This document shows positions 454 through 11,322 of a stretch of DNA of 64,000 nt, in pieces (position 1 is the stretch's first letter; every line of letters starts with the position of its first letter). The notes beneath the pieces are model-generated. The model did no database searches, was not told the origin of the DNA, and worked only from the letters and a program-made list of their open reading frames with translations. Source of the stretch: Ruminococcus sp. (GTDB taxonomy: Bacteria > Bacillota > Clostridia > Oscillospirales > Acutalibacteraceae); the NCBI GenBank assembly GCA_022768065.1, contig JALELS010000009.1, forward strand, positions 1 through 64,000. Direction: 5' to 3'. A program made the translations under genes and the position numbers.

Positions 454-704
454 ATACGAGAAAAGCCATGCTTTTAAAACTCGGTTCTCTTCAGTTCTCG
501 CTTTGGGAACTGCATCTCTATCTCGATACACATCCTATGGATACCGCCGCCGAGGCGCGTTACCGGGGGTATAAAAAATGTTACGATGAAGTGAGAGCCG
601 AATTTACGGAGAAATACGGACCGCTGAGTCCCTCCGAGGGCAACGGTGAAAAATGGCTGAAATCGCCGTGGCCTTGGGAAAAACAAGAGGAGTGTGTTAA
701 ATAA
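444..704 (+). CDS. cotJB: Spore coat protein CotJB
   Basis: 86-aa ORF 'LQFSLWELHLYLDTHP...', between cotJA and cotJC. Confidence 0.88.
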   Translation: MYMNTRKAMLLKLGSLQFSLWELHLYLDTHPMDTAAEARYRGYKKCYDEVRAEFTEKYGPLSPSEGNGEKWLKSPWPWEKQEECVK

Positions 705-1321
705 TGTTTTCGTATGAAAAAATGCTGCAATATCCGGTAAATATAAAAAATCCAAATCCCAAATACGCTCAGATAGTATTAGAGCAGTACGGCGGTCCCG
801 ACGGAGAACTCGGCGCTTCGCTGCGTTATCTCTCACAGCGTTTTTCAATGCCTTGTCCCGAACTTAAAGGACTTCTCACCGATATCGGTACCGAGGAGCT
901 CGGACACCTCGAAATGATAGGCGCAATAGTTTATCAGCTTACGAGAAATCTCTCTGTTGAAGAAATTAAGAAGGGTGGATTTGACGCATATTTTGTAAAT
1001 CATACAACGGGAGTGTACCCGGCAGGGGCAAACGGTATGCCGTTTAACGCAGGCTCTCTTGCTTCTAAGGGCGACGTCATAACGGATCTTCACGAAAATA
1101 TGGCGGCGGAACAAAAGGCGCGAACCACATATGACAATATTCTGAGGCTTGTTGACGACCCCGATGTCAGAGACGCCATAAAATTCCTGCGCGAGCGCGA
1201 GATAGTCCATTATCAGCGATTCGGCGAAGGACTCAGAATTGCCACCGACAAGCTGAACGAAAAGAACTTCTACGCCTTTAATCCGAGCTTTGATACAAGA
1301 TGTAACAGGAAAATGCGCTGA
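704..1321 (+). CDS. cotJC: Manganese catalase family spore coat protein CotJC
   Basis: 'MFSYEKMLQYPVNIKNPNPKYAQIVLEQYGGPDGELGASLRYLSQRF...DIGTEELGHLEMI' is characteristic of CotJC. Confidence 0.93.
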   Translation: MFSYEKMLQYPVNIKNPNPKYAQIVLEQYGGPDGELGASLRYLSQRFSMPCPELKGLLTDIGTEELGHLEMIGAIVYQLTRNLSVEEIKKGGFDAYFVNHTTGVYPAGANGMPFNAGSLASKGDVITDLHENMAAEQKARTTYDNILRLVDDPDVRDAIKFLREREIVHYQRFGEGLRIATDKLNEKNFYAFNPSFDTRCNRKMR

Positions 1322-1382
1322 TTTGGGTACGGCTTCTTTTCACTATAAGACTCGTACCCATATGTAAATATATAAAATAAAG

Positions 1383-1412
1383 ACCGTTCTGCTTTTTCGG
1401 AACGGTCTTTAA
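1383..1412 (+). terminator. Rho-independent terminator after cotJABC
   Basis: AAGACCGTTC-TGCTTTTTC-GGAACGGTCTTT hairpin plus T-run. Confidence 0.8.
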
Positions 1413-1556
1413 TATGTCCGCAAAAACGGACGTTTGATGTGTTTCAACACAAAACTCGGTTTACACCCGCAGTTTTATATGATAAAATAACAACAGTGCG
1501 GTCTATATAGGGCGCGGTATTGCCGTGGTGTCGCCTTTCGGCACAATCCCGAGGAA

Positions 1557-1668
1557 AATAAAAAGACCTGCCAAAAGCAGGTCTTAACTCACACACTGTG
1601 AGGTTTCCGAAGCAACGGTTAGAATAAATTTTTATTTGAACTCGTAGTGTAATCTCGGTACTGAGATT
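1557..1668 (-). ncRNA. Type II CRISPR tracrRNA
   Basis: Plus-strand 1634-1667 (ATTTGAACTCGTAGTGTAATCTCGGTACTGAGAT) matches the array repeat in blocks TTTGA / GTAGTGTAAT / GGTACTGA, so the minus transcript is an anti-repeat. It is followed on the minus strand by CAAATAAAAATTTATTCTAACCGTTGCTTCGG, hairpin CTCACAGTGTGTGAG, and terminator AGACCTGCTTTTGGCAGGTCTTTTT. Confidence 0.9.
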
Positions 1669-1674
1669 ATCTAC

Positions 1675-1703
1675 ATCATAACATCTTGTTTCGGTTTTGT
1701 CAA
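1675..1703 (-). promoter_or_regulatory. Sigma-70/A-type promoter for tracrRNA
   Basis: Minus strand TTGACA (1703-1698), 17-nt spacer, TATGAT (1680-1675), 7 nt upstream of the inferred RNA 5' end. Confidence 0.85.
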
Positions 1704-1752
1704 CACTGTTTTTCACTCAATGAGTGTAATATATTTTTAAAGGAGAATTTTT

Positions 1753-3060
1753 ATGGGTAAAAATTTGCGGAATGTGGATTACGATTATTATTTGGGTCTT
1801 GACATCGGGTCCGATTCTGTTGGATGGGCTGTAACTGACGCGGATTACGTCATTCCGAAGTTCAAAGGAAATGCTATGTGGGGCGTTCATCTTTTTGATG
1901 AGGGACAAACCTCGGCTGAACGCAGAGGTTTCAGAAGCGCAAGAAGGCGTACTCAACGAAAAAAAGAGCGTTTATCGCTTTTGGAAATGCTTTTTGATGA
2001 AGAAATTTGCAAAAAGGACTGTACGTTTTTCAGACGGCTTCACGAGAGTAATTTGTGGCCGGAGGACAAGTCCGGCGATGATAAATACGCCGTTTTTGCA
2101 GACGAAAATTATACGGATAAGGACTTCTGCAGGGAATATCCGACAATATATCACCTGAGATACGAGCTTATTAAAAATAAAGAGCCGCATGATGTTAGGC
2201 TTGTCTTTTTAGCCCTTCATCATATCATAAAAAACAGGGGACATTTTCTCTTTGATTCCCTGTCGTCGGCTAAAGACTTTGATTCGGCATACGGCGCTTT
2301 GTGTTCTTATCTCGGCGACAACGAAATACAGCTTAATTGTTCCGATATCGAGCAGTTTAAAAACATATTAAAGGACAGGCATCAGGGTAAAGTCGAAAAG
2401 ACAAAAAATCTTGCTTCGCTTTTCGGTATAACAAAAAAATCGGACCCCGTTTCTTTTGCCGTAATGGCCGTTCTAAGCGGCTCGACGGTTAAGATGTGTG
2501 ATTTGTTTGACGATGACGAACTCAAAACAGCAGAGAAGAACAGTATATCGTTTAAAAGCGGCTACGAAGAAAACGAAGAAATATACGCGTCCGTTTTAGG
2601 CGAGCGTTTTGAGCTTGTCGAGCTTTTAAAGGCGGTATACGATTGGGCTGTACTCGCCGACATTTTAGACGGCAAGAAGTATATCTCCGAGGCAAAGGTC
2701 GCCGTATATGAAAAACATAAAAATGATTTAAAAACGCTTAAAAAATATGTCAAAACGTATTTACCCGAAAAGTATAACGAGATATTTAAAATAAGCGACG
2801 GCAAATGTGACAATTATGTGGCGTATTCCGGTCACATTAAAGAAAACGGCAAAACAGGCGAACTAAAAAAGACCTGTAATTCCGAGCAGTTCTGCGATTA
2901 TCTTAAAAAGCAGCTCGGCCAAAACGCCGACCCGTCATACAAAGAAATGTTTGACGAAATCGAGAATAAGACCTTTATGCCGAAGCAAGTGACAAAGGAT
3001 AAGGTACTGAAACATAATGTCAGACAACACTTGATTAGCAGATGTTTGAGAGTAGTGTAA
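1753..3060 (+). pseudogene. cas9: Cas9, 3'-truncated: N-terminal RuvC-I, bridge helix and partial REC lobe, fused to CRISPR repeat/spacer
   Basis: 'YYLGLDIGSDSVGWAVTD' (RuvC-I), 'ERRGFRSARRRTQRKKERL' (bridge helix), 'LALHHIIKNRGHFLFD'; Cas9-like until '...KTFMPKQVTKD', then the frame enters 'ATAAGGTACTGAAAC' (repeat 3' half) and a spacer and stops inside the first full repeat. No HNH, RuvC-II/III or PAM-interacting domain. Confidence 0.93.
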
Positions 3061-3935
3061 TTCTATAAGGTACTGAAACTGCATTATACCGTCTTTGCCC
3101 CTCGCCTTTGTTTGAGAGTAGTGTAATTCTATAAGGTACTGAAACTTCGGACTTGTGATATAAATGACTATACATGTTTGAGAGTAGTGTAATTCTATAA
3201 GGTACTGAAACTTCGGACTTGTGATATAAATGACTATACATGTTTGAGAGTAGTGTAATTCTATAAGGTACTGAAACTGCAACTTACTTTGCGCAACGTG
3301 AGCTTAAGTTTGAGAGTAGTGTAATTCTATAAGGTACTGAAACGTGCTAAATCTTGTTAAGGCTCCCTCTCTAGTTTGAGAGTAGTGTAATTCTATAAGG
3401 TACTGAAACCTAAAAAGATTTAATACAAGGGCACTAACGTTTGAGAGTAGTGTAATTCTATAAGGTACTGAAACTTTGTCATTTCAATTTGTTATAGCTC
3501 CCTCGTTTGAGAGTAGTGTAATTCTATAAGGTACTGAAACCGTTGGCAATAAGCTCATCAAGTTTAGACTGTTTGAGAGTAGTGTAATTCTATAAGGTAC
3601 TGAAACTATATGCGAGACTAATAACGGCACTGCACAGTTTGAGAGTAGTGTAATTCTATAAGGTACTGAAACAAATCCCGAAAACATTATGCTCGTCTCC
3701 CAGTTTGAGAGTAGTGTAATTCTATAAGGTACTGAAACGAAAGCGCAAAAGTCAGCACCACAGAACAGTTTGAGAGTAGTGTAATTTCATAAGGTACTGA
3801 AACACGGGTGTGAAGAATCCGACACCCAGGAAAGTTTGAGAGTAGTGTAATTCTATAAGGTACTGAAACAATGGCGACGGTGCACGAATAGGCTCAAGTG
3901 TTTGAGAGCAGTGCAGCCATAATCGAGGTATTTTT
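2999..3935 (+). CRISPR. Type II CRISPR array: 13 full 36-nt repeats, a 15-nt partial repeat at the 5' junction, a degenerate terminal repeat, 14 spacers of 29-30 nt
   Basis: Repeat GTTTGAGAGTAGTGTAATTCTATAAGGTACTGAAAC starting at 3044, 3110, 3176, 3242, 3308, 3374, 3439, 3505, 3571, 3637, 3703, 3768 (variant TTTCAT) and 3834; terminal degenerate GTTTGAGAGCAGTGCAGCCATAATCGAGG at 3900. Repeat decay at the 3' end supports transcription on +. Confidence 0.99.
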
Positions 3936-4430
3936 ATGAACAAAAAAGACGTGAATACTTCTTACGGTAAGAGCAGCGGTTTTTTCGCCGAAAGGACAAA
4001 AACCCGTCGAAAAAGCAAAACTCTCTGTACGGCTTTGTATCTGTCGATTGCTTTTGTTATTTGTGTTGCTGCCGCAATTTTAATATGGCGCGGCATACAA
4101 AATCATAAAACCGGTTATCGCAGTACGCTGCCGGGCGCCGAAAAGGTCTATCCTACAGTTATGGTCGACGGCTCTTTGTACGAGTGGTACAAGGGCGCCG
4201 CAATATGCGATGATTTGCCGCAGGACTGCGTTTTTTACGGTGATATTAAATATGTTGCGAAAAAGACTCCGAAAAATGATTGCGAGTTTTCCGCCGCTTT
4301 CGACGCCGAGGGACAAATTTACAAAGTGCCCGACGAAGCTTCGGTGTATCTTGTGCTTACAACATATTGGCTCAGCAATACCGTTGTTAAATTTGACGCT
4401 GTAAGTACCGCCGTTTCGGAGCTTTTATAA
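3936..4430 (+). CDS. Hypothetical protein with N-terminal transmembrane segment
   Basis: ORF starts immediately after the degenerate terminal repeat; SD-like GAGG lies inside that repeat. Confidence 0.65.
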   Translation: MNKKDVNTSYGKSSGFFAERTKTRRKSKTLCTALYLSIAFVICVAAAILIWRGIQNHKTGYRSTLPGAEKVYPTVMVDGSLYEWYKGAAICDDLPQDCVFYGDIKYVAKKTPKNDCEFSAAFDAEGQIYKVPDEASVYLVLTTYWLSNTVVKFDAVSTAVSELL

Positions 4431-4452
4431 TAGTTATATTTTGCCGCCGCTA

Positions 4453-4577
4453 TTGACTTAGCGGCGAAATGGTGCTATATTACATACCGATAAAACAACG
4501 TATGGATTTTTCCGGTCTTAAAAAGATGTGTTTTCGCCATGCAATTATTCGAGAATGAGTAATTGCGTGGCTTTTTT
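4453..4577 (+). promoter_or_regulatory. Leader with promoter, short uORF and intrinsic terminator upstream of MATE gene
   Basis: TTGACT-17nt-TATATT (4453-4481); uORF 4502-4558 (MDFSGLKKMCFRHAIIRE*); hairpin GCCATGCAATTA...TAATTGCGTGGC plus T6 (4536-4577). Confidence 0.6.
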
Positions 4578-4622
4578 AATTGTAAGAGGAAGTCCGCTGG
4601 TCAGAAAGGCAGATGTGTTTGT

Positions 4623-5981
4623 ATGAATGAAAAATTTATGAAGGAAAAGCCTGTTTTTCCGCTTATTATGTCTATGGCTACACCTATGGTGATATCAATG
4701 CTTGTCAATTCGCTTTATAATATAGTGGACAGCTTTTTTGTCGCCAAAATAGGCGAGGACGCAATAACCGCTCTGTCGCTAGTCTATCCGGTGCAAAATC
4801 TTGTCAATGCGCTTGCAATAGGCTTCGGAGTGGGTCTCAATGCCGTTATCGCGTTTCACCTCGGCGCAGGCGAAAAAGAGGCGGCCGATACCGCCGCCAC
4901 GCACGGTTTTTTGTTCTCAATACTTCACGGCATTATTGCCGCCGCGGTCAGCATTCCGATTATGCGCCCGTTCCTTAAAATGTTCACACAGTCCGAAAAC
5001 GCAATTTCGCTCGGAGTTCGCTATTCCACAATAGTTTTTTCATTCTCCGCCGTAATCATGGTAAGCCTCGCATACGAAAAAATCTTTCAGGCCGTGGGCA
5101 GAATGAATGCTTCCATGGCAGGACTTATGACGGGCTGTATCGTAAATATCGTGCTCGATCCGCTTTTGATATTCGGCATAGGGCCGTTCCCGAAAATGGG
5201 AATTGACGGCGCCGCCCTCGCAACAGGCATAGGGCAGGTGAGCACGCTTTTACTTTATGTGGTTTTATATGTCGTAAAAAGACCGAGCGTGACCATAAAC
5301 CGCAAGTATTTAAAGCGCAATAAAGTTATAGACCGTAAGCTGTATTTTATCGGAATTCCCGCGGCAATAAATCTTGCTCTGCCGTCTTTGCTTGTGTCAA
5401 GCCTCAATGCAATGCTTGCGTCGTTTTCGCAGATATATGTTGTTGTCCTCGGCGTATACTATAAGCTTCAGACGTTTTTATATCTTCCCGCCAACGGCAT
5501 AGTGCAGGGTATGAGACCCATAATAGGCTACAATTACGGCGCGGCGGAGCATAAAAGAGTTAAAAAAATATATGATATAACTCTTGTGCTGACGGCAGGC
5601 ATAATGCTTTTCGGTACCGTACTGTGCCTTGCGTTGCCGCATAAGCTGATAGGAATGTTCACTGATAATCCCGAAACCGTAAACGCAGGCAAAAAGGCTC
5701 TTATGATAATCAGTGCCGGATTTGTGGTTTCATCGGTTTCGGTGACCTCTTCGGGCGCTCTTGAGGGACTCGGTAAGGGCGTTGAATCTCTCATAATATC
5801 GCTTTGCAGATATGCGATTGTAATAATACCGACAGCTTTTGTTTTAACACGGATATTCGGCGCCGACGGTGTTTGGAATGCCTTTTGGATAGCCGAGACC
5901 GTGTCCGCCGTAATTTCCGTTATTGTTTACAAAAAGGCGGTCGGTAATAAGCTTAAACGCAGTTCCGAAATCAGCTCTTGA
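4623..5981 (+). CDS. MATE family multidrug efflux transporter
   Basis: 'FPLIMSMATPMVISMLVNSLYNIVDSFFVAKIGEDAITALSLVYPVQNL'; internal ATG chosen because the longer ORF start falls inside the terminator. Confidence 0.92.
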   Translation: MNEKFMKEKPVFPLIMSMATPMVISMLVNSLYNIVDSFFVAKIGEDAITALSLVYPVQNLVNALAIGFGVGLNAVIAFHLGAGEKEAADTAATHGFLFSILHGIIAAAVSIPIMRPFLKMFTQSENAISLGVRYSTIVFSFSAVIMVSLAYEKIFQAVGRMNASMAGLMTGCIVNIVLDPLLIFGIGPFPKMGIDGAALATGIGQVSTLLLYVVLYVVKRPSVTINRKYLKRNKVIDRKLYFIGIPAAINLALPSLLVSSLNAMLASFSQIYVVVLGVYYKLQTFLYLPANGIVQGMRPIIGYNYGAAEHKRVKKIYDITLVLTAGIMLFGTVLCLALPHKLIGMFTDNPETVNAGKKALMIISAGFVVSSVSVTSSGALEGLGKGVESLIISLCRYAIVIIPTAFVLTRIFGADGVWNAFWIAETVSAVISVIVYKKAVGNKLKRSSEISS

Positions 5982-6175
5982 TTTTGTACAAATTACCTTA
6001 AAAGCAATTGACACGGCACAGATTTTAACGTATAATTTGCACATAATAATGCCGCAAAAACGGCTTGTTTGTACAAAATTTATACATTATGGCATTGCTT
6101 AAGCGACAAGCTCCGAAAAAATTTTTTGAGCTTTTCGGTTGCTTGGATTTATGCGATAACGTAAGGGGCGAAAAA

Positions 6176-7510
6176 ATGAATACAGTAAGATTAAAAACCT
6201 TATGCGGTGATATTGTCGGACTTGATAACGGCGGCTACGTTGAGTTCCGCGGCATAAAGTACGCCGATGCAGGCAGATGGGAGTATCCCGTCGTTAACGA
6301 AAAGTGGGACGGAGTATATGATGCGACCGCTTTCGGCGATTGCTGTTATCAGCACCGCGGATTTGAGGACGACGCAAAGGTTAACCCGTTTTATCACAGG
6401 GAATTCAGACGCGGCATGAGCTTTACATACAGCGAAGACTGTCAGTACCTCAATATCAGTGCGCCCAAAAACGCAAAAAATTGCCCCGTTTTGCTGTATA
6501 TACACGGCGGTTCTTTTACGGGCGGCAGTTCAAACGAAGGGCACATCAGCGGTAAGGCGTATGCCGAAAATGACATTGTTTTTGTCTCCGTGAATTACCG
6601 TCTCGGACCTTACGGCTTTTGTTCTCACCCCGATGTTGCCGATGAAAACGGCGTATGCGGCAATTTCGGCCTTTTTGACCAGGCGGCCGCTCTTAAATGG
6701 ATAAAAAACAACATTTCTTCTTTCGGCGGCAATCCCGACAGAATAACCCTTTTGGGGCAGAGCGCCGGCGCTATGAGCGTAGATGTGCTTTTGTCAAGCC
6801 CTCTTACAAAGGATATGGTGTCGGGTGCCGTTATGTTGAGCGGAGCCGCGCTTCAGCGAGCTTTGTCGCGCCCGCTGTCGCCGCAAAAGATGAAAAAATT
6901 CTGGGATGAAATAATCAAAAACGCCGGTAAAACAAGCCTTTCGGAGCTTCGCGGGACAGACGCGAAAACCCTTTACTATGCTTGGCTCAAGGCATGCCGC
7001 GACGAGGGGATTAAAAGCACCCTCTTTTATACGTTGCCGTGCGATGACGGCAAGCTCCTCACAAAGGATACATTCAATATAAAAACGATAAGCGCAATGC
7101 CGAAAATACTCGGCGTTACAACGGCGGATATGATACCGATAGTTTTAAAACTGCTTGTGAAAAAGTGGGTGCGAAACGATAAGGACAGTAAATGCTTTGT
7201 CTATCTTTTTGCGCGCGATTTGCCGGGCGATAACTGCGGCGCATGGCATTCAAGTGATTTACCGTATGTATTTTCAACGCTTAAAAACAGTTGGCGTCCG
7301 TTTACCGATATCGACTGTCTCATATCGGAGCAAATGGTATCGGCAATCAGCGCATTTGTAAAGAGCGGCGACCCGAATTGCAGGGAAATACCGACCTGGA
7401 AGCCCGGAACGCACAGGGTGATGAATTTCTGCGAAAAGACGCGCCTTGCAGGCTGGAAGACCGCAACGCTTATAAAAAATACACTTTTCAACAAGGGACC
7501 GGTGCTGTAA
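6176..7510 (+). CDS. Type B carboxylesterase / para-nitrobenzyl esterase family
   Basis: 'EDCQYLNISAPKNAKNCPVLLYIHGGSFTGGSSNEG' and 'FGGNPDRITLLGQSAGAMSVDVLLSSPL' (GQSAG nucleophile elbow). Confidence 0.9.
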   Translation: MNTVRLKTLCGDIVGLDNGGYVEFRGIKYADAGRWEYPVVNEKWDGVYDATAFGDCCYQHRGFEDDAKVNPFYHREFRRGMSFTYSEDCQYLNISAPKNAKNCPVLLYIHGGSFTGGSSNEGHISGKAYAENDIVFVSVNYRLGPYGFCSHPDVADENGVCGNFGLFDQAAALKWIKNNISSFGGNPDRITLLGQSAGAMSVDVLLSSPLTKDMVSGAVMLSGAALQRALSRPLSPQKMKKFWDEIIKNAGKTSLSELRGTDAKTLYYAWLKACRDEGIKSTLFYTLPCDDGKLLTKDTFNIKTISAMPKILGVTTADMIPIVLKLLVKKWVRNDKDSKCFVYLFARDLPGDNCGAWHSSDLPYVFSTLKNSWRPFTDIDCLISEQMVSAISAFVKSGDPNCREIPTWKPGTHRVMNFCEKTRLAGWKTATLIKNTLFNKGPVL

Positions 7511-9801
7511 TGAAGTTTTCACATGATTTTAAGCTGTCCGAGCACAGCGGCAGCAGCAGAGTATACGCTTGCGGTGATATTACGGCGCGAATCGACTTCT
7601 TGAGCGGCAGTATGATGCGCGTTGCCTTATTTCGAGATGGCTGTAAAATGTTGCCCACATTTACCGTAGATCCGCAAAACGAATTTCTCACGGAGGGCAG
7701 GGATAAGCTGAGCCTTGACGGATTTCCGCTGTTTACTCCGAAAGTAGATGAAACAGCAGAGGGCGAGCGCTTTTCTTTGGGAACTGTCGAAGCAGAGCTT
7801 GATACTCATAATTTTGTGCTGAGTTATAAAAAGGACGGCAAGCTTCTTTTTGCCGACAGAGCGCCGCTTGCCTATAATTTCCAAAATGAATTCGGCAACG
7901 GAACTTATCATTATATAACGCGCGAAAAGGGCGAAAAAATATACGGCCTCGGCGATAAGGGCGGAAGCGTCAATAAAGCGGGGCGTACATTTCGCATAGA
8001 GACGAGCGACAGTATGGGTTATGACGCGGAAACGTCGGACCCGCTTTATAAGCACGTGCCGTTTTATATGTGTGAAAATTCCGTCGGTTGCTACGGTATC
8101 TATTATGATACGTCCGACAGCTCCGTTATGGATCTCGGCAGAGAAATAAATAATTATTATCCTGCCTTTAAGTTCTTTAAAAGTGACGACGATTCGCTCG
8201 TTTACTACGTATTTTTCGGCTCAAAGCTTGAAATTTTACGGCAGTATTGCTCCGTCTGCGGAAAGCAGACCTTACCTCCGAAATGGAGCTTTGATTACTG
8301 TGCCAGCACCATGGCTTATACCGACGCTCCGAATTCCGAAGAAAAAATGTACGAATTCCTTAAAAAGCTTGAAACCTTAAATATGGGCTGCGGCGGATTT
8401 TATCTGTCATCGGGGTATACCTCCGTCGGCAATCTGCGGTGCGTTTTTAATTGGAATTATGATAAATTCCCAGATCCTGCCAAGTTTATTGAGCGTTTTA
8501 ACGGCGAGAAAATTCACTTGATACCAAATATCAAGCCTGCATTTTTGACGTCGCACCCTATGTATGATGAAATAGCCGAAAAAGGACTTTTTGTAAAGAA
8601 CGACGACGGCACACCGTTTGTAACCGAGTTTTGGGACGGTATGGGCAGTTATATTGATTTTACTCTGCCCGAGGGCTTTAAGTTTTGGCACGACAATGTT
8701 ACTGAAAAGCTCCTTGACTTCGGAATAGATGCCACTTGGAACGATAATAACGAATTTGATATAAAAGATACCGACGCTGTGGCAAACGGCTTTAAAGACG
8801 GTAGCGTAAAGGCGAGCAGAATAAGACCGATACTCACATATCTAATGGTCGCCTCCTCGTACTCGGCGCAAACAGAAAAATATCCGGGCAAAAGGCCGTT
8901 TTTATCGACCCGAAGCGGCAGCAGCGCCGTACGTCGTCTCGCAACCACATGGTCGGGAGACAATTTTACATCGTTTAACGACCTTCGCTATTGCCATTAC
9001 ATAGGGATGACAATGTCTCTTTCGGGATTTTTCTTCTACGGGCATGACCTCGGCGGATTTTCGGGAGATATGCCGTCACGGGAGCTGCTTTTAAGATGGA
9101 TGCAGCACGGCATTTTTGAGCCGAGATTTACAATACATTCGTGGAATTCGGACGGCTCCGCCACTATGCCGTGGAGCTATCCCGATGCCGTACCTGCCGC
9201 CCGAAAGATAATGGCGGAAAGGAAAAAACTCATTCCTTATCTTTATAACTCAGCCTTTTTGTCGGCGGAAAACGATGTGCCCATGACATCTCCGCTGTTC
9301 CTCTACTATGATGACAAAGAGATAGACTGCGACAGCGCTTCGTTCCTCGTAGGCAGGGATATTCTCGCTGCGTGTATTCTTGACGAGGGAGTGAACGATA
9401 CCGAGGTTTATCTTCCCAAAAACGAAATTTGGTATTTAAACGATAGAGTATACGACGGCGGCACGTCCGTAACGCTGAATATTCCGCCCGACGGCGAGGT
9501 TCCGTATTTTGTACGCGGCGGAAGTGTTATAGCCTATGATGAGGCTTTGTACGGCTATAAGTCTGCGGAAAAATTAAGGTTTACCGTGTATCCGTTAAGG
9601 AGCGGCAGCTTTAAATCCGAATTCTTTACCGATGACGGCGAAAGCTTTGCGTATAAAACCGGCGACTGTGTTCATTTGCGCTTCACCGTGGATTGTGACA
9701 GTGAGTATGTCAAAGTTCATATCGAGAATATCGGTAAGAAGACAATTACACCCGATATTGTGCTCTGCGGCGCCGACGACAGAATACTGACGGTAGAATA
9801 A
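7510..9801 (+). CDS. Glycoside hydrolase family 31 (alpha-glucosidase/alpha-xylosidase-like)
   Basis: 'IDATWNDNNEFDI', 'GMTMSLSGFFFYGHDLGGFSG'; ATG at 7510 used. Confidence 0.9.
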   Translation: MKFSHDFKLSEHSGSSRVYACGDITARIDFLSGSMMRVALFRDGCKMLPTFTVDPQNEFLTEGRDKLSLDGFPLFTPKVDETAEGERFSLGTVEAELDTHNFVLSYKKDGKLLFADRAPLAYNFQNEFGNGTYHYITREKGEKIYGLGDKGGSVNKAGRTFRIETSDSMGYDAETSDPLYKHVPFYMCENSVGCYGIYYDTSDSSVMDLGREINNYYPAFKFFKSDDDSLVYYVFFGSKLEILRQYCSVCGKQTLPPKWSFDYCASTMAYTDAPNSEEKMYEFLKKLETLNMGCGGFYLSSGYTSVGNLRCVFNWNYDKFPDPAKFIERFNGEKIHLIPNIKPAFLTSHPMYDEIAEKGLFVKNDDGTPFVTEFWDGMGSYIDFTLPEGFKFWHDNVTEKLLDFGIDATWNDNNEFDIKDTDAVANGFKDGSVKASRIRPILTYLMVASSYSAQTEKYPGKRPFLSTRSGSSAVRRLATTWSGDNFTSFNDLRYCHYIGMTMSLSGFFFYGHDLGGFSGDMPSRELLLRWMQHGIFEPRFTIHSWNSDGSATMPWSYPDAVPAARKIMAERKKLIPYLYNSAFLSAENDVPMTSPLFLYYDDKEIDCDSASFLVGRDILAACILDEGVNDTEVYLPKNEIWYLNDRVYDGGTSVTLNIPPDGEVPYFVRGGSVIAYDEALYGYKSAEKLRFTVYPLRSGSFKSEFFTDDGESFAYKTGDCVHLRFTVDCDSEYVKVHIENIGKKTITPDIVLCGADDRILTVE

Positions 9802-9818
9802 TACAATGTGAATTACAA

Positions 9819-9866
9819 AAAAGAGCCTCGGATATGCTTGTTTTCAGCGTATCCGAGGCTCTGTTA
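9819..9866. terminator. Bidirectional terminator between convergent genes
   Basis: AAAAAAGAGCCTCGGATATGC-TTGTTTTCA-GCGTATCCGAGGCTC. Confidence 0.8.
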
Positions 9867-9888
9867 TTATAAAAGTCTTATTTTGATT

Positions 9889-11322
9889 TTACTTTGTTTC
9901 GGCTTCTGCTTTTTCTCTTCTTTCAAGCAAAACCTTATGGAGCTCTTCAAGCTGCTCCTTTGAAAGCTTATAGCCGAATGTCAATACCACAAACATAAGG
10001 GCAAGCAGTATTGCAGGAACTATTGTCGCTATATCATAGAGTCTTGTCAGAACTTCGGGTGACTGAACGGCGAGCTTGCCGTCATATCCGATAGCTCCGA
10101 GAACACCTGCCGCGCCGGCGCCGGCTACTGTTTGACCGAGCTTGCGTGCAAATGAATAAAAACTGTAAGATGTGCCCTCTTCCCGTCTGCCCGATATATA
10201 TTCGTGATAGTCCGTGACATCCGTAACAAGCGCCCATATTTCCATAATGAGGAATGTCTGACCTGCTCCCGAGAAGAACGAGAGAACAAGGAATACATAC
10301 GGATTGCTCACAGCCGGAGTAAATCTTATAAGGAACATTACTATGTTTACAATAAGAGCAAAGAGTATTCCGGCGGAGCATATCTCCTTTTTGCCGAATT
10401 TCCTTATGAGCTTGCCCATAAAAGGCAAAAGCAGTACCATCGGCAAATATGTGCATACCGTAACAAGTGCATAAAGACCCGGCTTTTCATAGAAGTTCTT
10501 AAAGAGATAGTTGTAAACGGTCTGTGTGTACATCTGGAAGCAGATAAGAAGCATTGACACTATGCAAAGTGCGATAAACGGCTTGTTCTTTAAAAGAGCG
10601 CGCATCGCTTTGCCGAGATTGTAATCCTTTTGATTCTGTGTGGGCGGTAAGGTTATTCTTTCCTTAGTCAGCTTAAAATGCAAGAAGAAAATTATTACGG
10701 TGAGAACGGAGAGAACAGCTACCGACAGCGAGAGCTTTGTGCCGTCGAGTACCTTTGCGGTTGTTCCGTTTTCTGCGGTTACGGTAGTGTAAACGAGGAG
10801 CGGCAAAAGGATAGAGGCGGGGAGCCCGCCTATGCCTGCGCCTATGCTTCGCCACATCGAAAGAGACGAACGCTCTATTTCGTCGTCCGTTATTACCGAG
10901 GCGAGCGAGCCGTAGGGAATATTTACGCCGGTGTACATCATACCGTAAAATATGTAAGTGATATATGCGTAAATAAGATACTGGTTGTCGCTGAGACCCG
11001 GAATTTTAAAGAACATAAAGAAAGCGCCTACCGCAAGCGGCAGAGATGCCCAAAGTATGTACGGTCTGAATCTTCCGTATTTGGTGGGCTTTCTTGAGTC
11101 GATAAAAGAACCCCACATAGGGTCGTTTACGGCGTCCCAAATTCTCGCTACTATCATTAGCACGGTAATGCGAGCCGCGGATATGCCGAGAACGTCCGTG
11201 TAAAACATATTCAAAAAGGCAGAGACAAGACCGAATGTCAGCAGTCCGCCCATATCGCCCATGGCATAGCCTATTTTGTCTTTAAAGGTTATACCGTGCA
11301 TTGACTCTTCCGATTTACTCAT
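9889..11322 (-). CDS. MFS sugar:cation symporter (GPH family)
   Basis: 'KIGYAMGDMGGLLTFGLVSAFLNMFYTDVLGI', 'RIWDAVNDPMWGSFIDSRKPTKYGRFRPYILW'. Confidence 0.92.
   Translation of the reverse strand: MSKSEESMHGITFKDKIGYAMGDMGGLLTFGLVSAFLNMFYTDVLGISAARITVLMIVARIWDAVNDPMWGSFIDSRKPTKYGRFRPYILWASLPLAVGAFFMFFKIPGLSDNQYLIYAYITYIFYGMMYTGVNIPYGSLASVITDDEIERSSLSMWRSIGAGIGGLPASILLPLLVYTTVTAENGTTAKVLDGTKLSLSVAVLSVLTVIIFFLHFKLTKERITLPPTQNQKDYNLGKAMRALLKNKPFIALCIVSMLLICFQMYTQTVYNYLFKNFYEKPGLYALVTVCTYLPMVLLLPFMGKLIRKFGKKEICSAGILFALIVNIVMFLIRFTPAVSNPYVFLVLSFFSGAGQTFLIMEIWALVTDVTDYHEYISGRREEGTSYSFYSFARKLGQTVAGAGAAGVLGAIGYDGKLAVQSPEVLTRLYDIATIVPAILLALMFVVLTFGYKLSKEQLEELHKVLLERREKAEAETK

What the first reader, a model, noticed from the sequence alone, without database searches (positions are those of the whole stretch)
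1753..3079. cas9 fused in frame to a CRISPR repeat: deletion chimera of a type II locus
The ORF is Cas9-like for about 415 aa (RuvC-I, Arg-rich bridge helix, start of REC) up to '...KTFMPKQVTKD'. It then reads into ATAAGGTACTGAAAC, the last 15 nt of the array repeat, then a full spacer, and stops at a TAA supplied by the first complete repeat (TTTGAGAGTAGTGTAA). HNH, RuvC-II/III and PAM-interacting regions are gone, as are any cas1/cas2/csn2 and the leader. The simplest model is one deletion with one end in cas9 and the other inside an array repeat. If the ancestral codon after D was AAC/AAT, the ends share ATAA, a 4-nt microhomology. That is too short for a k-mer misjoin in assembly, which favours a real event. 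The product (RuvC-I + bridge helix + partial REC) would be a Cas9 remnant that cannot cleave.
Basis: partly seen in the sequence, partly recalled or inferred. Interest (0 to 1): 0.88.

Follow-up and report, generated by a model that had tools for sequence, protein, structure and literature searches.

The report
Deletion-truncated Cas9 immune locus
A bacterium has lost most of its CRISPR-Cas9 immune system through a deletion that joined the first third of the cas9 gene to the middle of a CRISPR repeat, leaving an inactive remnant; this is ordinary gene decay, caught at an early stage.

Summary
ORF 1753-3060 encodes the first 416 residues of a type II-A Cas9 (RuvC-I, bridge helix, part of REC). 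It then runs into the last 15 nt of the array's own repeat, one spacer, and a TAA in the first full repeat. Eleven relatives with full-length Cas9 all have Asn (AAC/AAT) at the next codon, so the proposed 4-nt ATAA microhomology is supported, although 4 nt or more is expected by chance at about 2% of junctions. Intact relatives read tracrRNA(-), cas9, cas1, cas2, csn2, leader, array, so about 4.7 kb plus an unknown number of leader-end repeats is missing. The rest of cas9, cas1 and cas2 were not found in the 97%-complete genome. A relative (L020) shows a separate deletion of cas1-cas2-csn2, so piecemeal loss recurs. 'Fused in frame' carries no information: any deletion ends in some frame. Best reading: a recent, probably single, deletion that inactivated the locus. 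Low interest. More striking, seen in passing: in a congener a complete type II-A locus sits inside a recombinase-bearing element that splits the spore-coat gene cotJC.

The parts
1563..1668 (-). tracrRNA gene, apparently intact: anti-repeat 1665-1633, Rho-independent terminator 1585-1563, promoter -35 TTGACA (starts 1703) and -10 TATGAT (ends 1675) with 17-nt spacer and TG extension
   Evidence: Duplex repeat:anti-repeat -29.8 kcal/mol against -16.3 +/- 2.7 for shuffled repeats, 0 of 500 reach it; promoter 11/12 and terminator; the same stretch is conserved upstream of cas9 in relatives, 77-92% identity in the best cases. Transcript ends are inferred.
1753..3000 (+). 5' fragment of cas9, 416 codons: RuvC-I (GLDIGSDSVGWAVTD), bridge helix (residues 57-89), partial REC lobe
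   Evidence: 65% identical to the full-length 1335-aa Cas9 of L017 over its first 413 residues
2999..3002 (+). ATAA shared by both deletion ends (microhomology; exact breakpoint ambiguous within it)
   Evidence: Asn codon AAC/AAT at this position in 11 of 11 relatives; the repeat reads ...TCTATAAGG...
2999..3013 (+). last 15 nt of a CRISPR repeat, the array-side end of the deletion
3001..3060 (+). 19 chimeric codons (KVLKHNVRQHLISRCLRVV) plus stop TAA, read from repeat end, spacer and next repeat
3014..3899 (+). remaining CRISPR array: 14 spacers (third and fourth identical) and 13 full 36-nt repeats, 12 identical and one (3768) with 2 mismatches
3900..3935 (+). degenerate terminal repeat (GTTTGAGAGCAGTGCAGCCATAATCGAG...): marks the leader-distal end of the array, so the lost leader was on the cas9 side
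   Evidence: sequence comparison

Best explanation
This is the remnant of an ordinary type II-A CRISPR-Cas locus. One deletion, probably microhomology-mediated or by replication slippage, removed everything from cas9 codon 417 through cas1, cas2, csn2, the leader and the leader-proximal end of the array (about 4.7 kb plus an unknown number of repeat-spacer units). Its end fell 15 nt before the 3' end of a repeat. The cas9 promoter would now read through a truncated gene into the array, and the tracrRNA gene is intact. Guide RNA precursors could therefore still be transcribed, but no protein is left that could read a PAM, form an R-loop, cut DNA or acquire spacers. The locus is inactive, and recently so. 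Shown here: the junction, the intact tracrRNA gene, the absent genes, the ancestral order in relatives. Inferred: the repair mechanism, that it was one event, transcription, and the loss of function.
For: Junction read directly. Ancestral order cas9-cas1-cas2-csn2-array in L017, L019, L023, L024, L026-L028, L030 and same-genus L065, L067. Asn codon at the break in 11/11 relatives. No rest of cas9, cas1 or cas2 in the 97%-complete genome. No second array with this repeat. Fragment not yet decayed: no stop or frameshift; 46 of 48 columns invariant in 18 relatives kept; 4.4% of conserved columns changed against 1-21% in the relatives. Repeats nearly identical and tracrRNA intact. A separate internal deletion (3' part of cas1, cas2, most of csn2) in relative L020 compared with L019.
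Against: The assembly is a 32-contig draft and the reads cannot be seen, so dominance of the deleted form in the population is inferred. Several successive deletions with the same end state cannot be excluded. Four nt of microhomology also arises by chance in about 2% of junctions. csn2 was not searched genome-wide, and the cas2 search had no positive control.
Confidence: 0.88

Rival explanations
1. Assembly chimera: cas9 and the array were joined wrongly, and the living cell has an intact locus.
For: Draft assembly of 32 contigs; CRISPR arrays are repetitive and hard to assemble; the window starts at a contig end, 1.7 kb upstream of cas9 (contig C8).
Against: The two sides share only about 4 nt and the sequence after the junction is a unique spacer, so no k-mer overlap of usual length could produce the join. 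The missing 4.7 kb is nowhere else in a 97%-complete bin. No other array with this repeat exists.
Confidence: 0.06
2. The truncated Cas9 (RuvC-I, bridge helix, partial REC) with tracrRNA and array is kept because it does something new, such as binding or sequestering crRNA:tracrRNA or regulating genes.
For: ORF open and conserved residues kept; tracrRNA gene complete with promoter and terminator; the retained part includes the arginine-rich helix and REC segments that touch guide RNA in known Cas9s (general knowledge).
Against: All of this is equally expected of a recent deletion. None of the relatives found shows the same break; L029 and L031 have fragmented reading frames but not this join. 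No PAM-reading, HNH or RuvC-II/III parts remain.
Confidence: 0.03
3. The locus decayed in several steps (for example loss of the adaptation genes first, as in L020, and of the rest of cas9 later).
For: L020 shows that loss of cas1-cas2-csn2 alone occurs in this group.
Against: Only one junction is visible, and one event suffices.
Confidence: 0.15

Closest known systems
Type II-A CRISPR-Cas locus (tracrRNA, cas9, cas1, cas2, csn2, leader, array)
   Same: cas9 start, divergent upstream tracrRNA, 36-nt repeats with 29-30-nt spacers, array orientation, degenerate terminal repeat; relatives with the full set
   Different: Two thirds of cas9, all adaptation genes and the leader are missing
Naturally truncated or deleted cas9 in Mycoplasma gallisepticum from house finches (PMC11893278)
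   Same: Natural loss of CRISPR-Cas9 function, including Cas9 truncated inside the REC lobe and partial deletion of the locus
   Different: There the truncations come from point mutations and a frameshift; here a deletion joins cas9 to a repeat
Deletion of cas1-cas2-csn2 in relative L020 (OMWP01000001) compared with L019
   Same: Short-homology deletion (about 3 nt, CGA) inside a related type II-A locus
   Different: cas9, leader and array stay intact there (interference-only), whereas here interference is lost too

Membership tests
Type II-A CRISPR-Cas, ancestrally | cas9 of the type II family | tested here: met
   First 416 aa only
Type II-A CRISPR-Cas, ancestrally | csn2 in the operon | tested here: not met
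   Absent between cas9 and array here; a ~220-aa ORF follows cas2 in relatives, taken as csn2 by position, not by profile
Type II-A CRISPR-Cas, ancestrally | cas1 and cas2 | tested here: not met
   No match in the whole genome; present in relatives
Type II-A CRISPR-Cas, ancestrally | tracrRNA pairing with the repeat | tested here: met
Type II-A CRISPR-Cas, ancestrally | array of identical repeats with unique spacers | tested here: met
   (one spacer is duplicated)
Active Cas9 nuclease | HNH, RuvC-II, RuvC-III and PAM-interacting regions | tested here: not met
   Match ends at position 416 of an expected ~1330; the rest is not found in the genome
Deletion remnant (pseudogene by truncation) | Abrupt end of homology coinciding with a second element of the locus | tested here: met
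   Homology ends exactly where the repeat begins
Deletion remnant (pseudogene by truncation) | No functional product | not testable with these tools
   Needs expression or knockout data

The most novel reading that the evidence does not exclude
A Cas9 N-terminal fragment, transcribed as one unit with its array and next to an intact tracrRNA gene, has been kept as an RNA-binding or regulatory protein without nuclease function.
Probability: 0.03. Interest if true: 0.65.

Novelty: new member of a known kind. Interest (0 to 1): 0.2.

Why it matters
It is a clean snapshot of how type II-A immunity is lost. The breakpoint lies inside a repeat, there is short microhomology, the tracrRNA gene and old spacers are still intact, and a relative has lost a different part of the same kind of locus. 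It warns that an array plus a cas9 hit plus a tracrRNA gene does not mean an active system. It does not reveal a new mechanism.

Tried and rejected
Self-targeting as the driver of loss: the surviving spacers have no match longer than 17 nt elsewhere in the genome; lost spacers cannot be tested. Spacer targets: none in phages or plasmids, nor exact matches of six spacers in viral contigs. Exact repeat in viral contigs: none. Same deletion in relatives: not found. Empty site from the gene downstream of the array: that 164-aa ORF has no good relative in the genus, so the insertion site could not be defined. Literature searches for an identical cas9-array fusion returned no direct precedent, but the searches were narrow. 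No structure prediction was run, since it would not bear on the verdict.

Full report
Observation. The ORF at 1753-3060 (435 aa) is real. Pfam finds the Cas9 bridge helix (residues 57-89) and the first 241 of 541 positions of the Cas9 REC lobe; NCBIfam gives Cas9 at 7e-62 but only over profile positions 1-198 of 1070. Solved Cas9 structures align from the start to about residue 416 (best 9jwk, 8e-65; 8pj9 reaches D406 against our D416). Homology to Cas9 ends exactly where the sequence ATAAGGTACTGAAAC begins, which is the last 15 nt of the 36-nt array repeat. A 30-nt spacer follows, then the first full repeat, whose GTGTAA supplies the stop. Thirteen full repeats follow to 3869 (12 identical, one with 2 mismatches), with 14 spacers in all, the third and fourth identical, and a degenerate terminal repeat at 3900. 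That terminal repeat marks the leader-distal end, so the lost leader lay on the cas9 side.

Ancestral state. Full-length relatives (1312-1367 aa) are followed on the same strand by cas1, cas2, a ~220-aa ORF in the position of csn2, a short leader and an array of near-identical repeats. In L017, the closest (65% identical), the distance from the equivalent break codon to the first repeat is about 4.7 kb. That is the minimum size of the deletion, since an unknown number of leader-end repeats went too. At the break, 11 of 11 relatives continue with Asn, encoded AAC or AAT, so the ancestral sequence very probably read GATAA[C/T], and the two ends share ATAA. Random cas9-array junctions share 4 nt or more in 2.1% of simulations: modest support for a microhomology-mediated event. 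'In frame' adds nothing, since reading into a non-coding repeat always continues in some frame until a stop.

What remains. Its anti-repeat (1665-1633) pairs with the repeat at -29.8 kcal/mol against -16.3 +/- 2.7 for shuffled repeats. It has an 11/12 extended -10 promoter and a 10-bp terminator with a T-rich tail, and the stretch is conserved upstream of cas9 in relatives. The genome (1.92 Mb, 32 contigs, 97% complete) has one cas9 match, one array with this repeat, no cas1, no cas2 and no rest of cas9; the cas2 search had no positive control. The fragment has not decayed: 46 of 48 columns invariant in 18 relatives are kept (both changes mild, T20S and A54S), and 4.4% of conserved columns are changed against 1-21% in the relatives. 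With near-identical repeats and an intact tracrRNA this points to a recent deletion; selection for the fragment cannot be excluded but is not needed.

Is it an assembly error? A join over 4 nt cannot come from k-mer overlap, and the sequence on the array side is a unique spacer, so the junction must exist in DNA molecules. Reads were not available, so a minority intact form in the population is possible.

Parallel case. L020 and L019 are two records that align at 97.6% over 8.2 kb through cas9. L020 lacks the 3' part of cas1, all of cas2 and nearly all of csn2, with a junction sharing about 3 nt (CGA), while cas9, leader and array remain. Piecemeal loss of this kind of locus therefore recurs in the group. 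Natural truncation of Cas9 within REC and partial locus deletion are also reported in Mycoplasma gallisepticum (PMC11893278).

Function. Without HNH, RuvC-II/III, the rest of REC and the PAM-interacting domain, the product cannot cut or read a PAM (established knowledge of Cas9 architecture). Without cas1, cas2, csn2 and leader no spacer can be added. The array may still be transcribed from the cas9 promoter (inference). The surviving spacers show no self-target longer than 17 nt and no phage, plasmid or viral source in the collections searched.

Verdict. The event is ordinary decay of a CRISPR locus. A more unusual thing seen on the way is recorded separately: in congener G006 a complete type II-A locus lies inside a 9.9-kb recombinase-bearing element that splits the spore-coat gene cotJC, the same gene that lies intact just upstream of the remnant in this window.

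Noticed in passing
L065 (G006:C4:68500-82000), about 1171-11106: cotJC is split at codons 62-63 by a 9,935-bp element that carries a large serine recombinase (Resolvase, Recombinase and Zn-ribbon domains) and a complete type II-A CRISPR-Cas locus (cas9, cas1, cas2, csn2-position ORF, array). Joining the flanks at the shared GGTA restores a full CotJC. It looks like a skin-type, sporulation-excised element with CRISPR-Cas as cargo; excision itself is not shown.
   Followed up: partly
L066 (G021), L068 (G048), G026:C8:381606-393866: cotJC is also split at the same place in other genomes of the genus and order, by 3.7-kb, about 8-kb and about 12-kb insertions; those in L066 and L068 carry large serine recombinases. 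L066 also restores CotJC when joined at GGTAC. In G022, G023 and G060 the halves lie on different contigs. Known gene-intervening elements sit in sigK, spsM, gerE and yabG (PMC5025042, PMC4191935, PMC5595907, PMC10747680); no paper on cotJC was found.
   Followed up: partly
window 704-1321: In this window cotJC is intact and the CRISPR remnant starts about 240 nt (tracrRNA terminator) downstream of it. Whether that neighbourhood is chance or a relic of an element like that of G006 is not known.
   Followed up: no
L020 12940-13600 compared with L019 12940-14875: Independent deletion of the 3' part of cas1, cas2 and most of csn2 in a relative, leaving cas9, leader and array: an interference-only type II-A locus.
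   Followed up: partly
L029 8944-12488 and L031 4-3830: cas9 relatives whose reading frame is split into two or more ORFs: further decayed loci or sequencing errors.
   Followed up: no
window 3146-3175 and 3212-3241: Two identical neighbouring spacers: duplication of one repeat-spacer unit.
   Followed up: no
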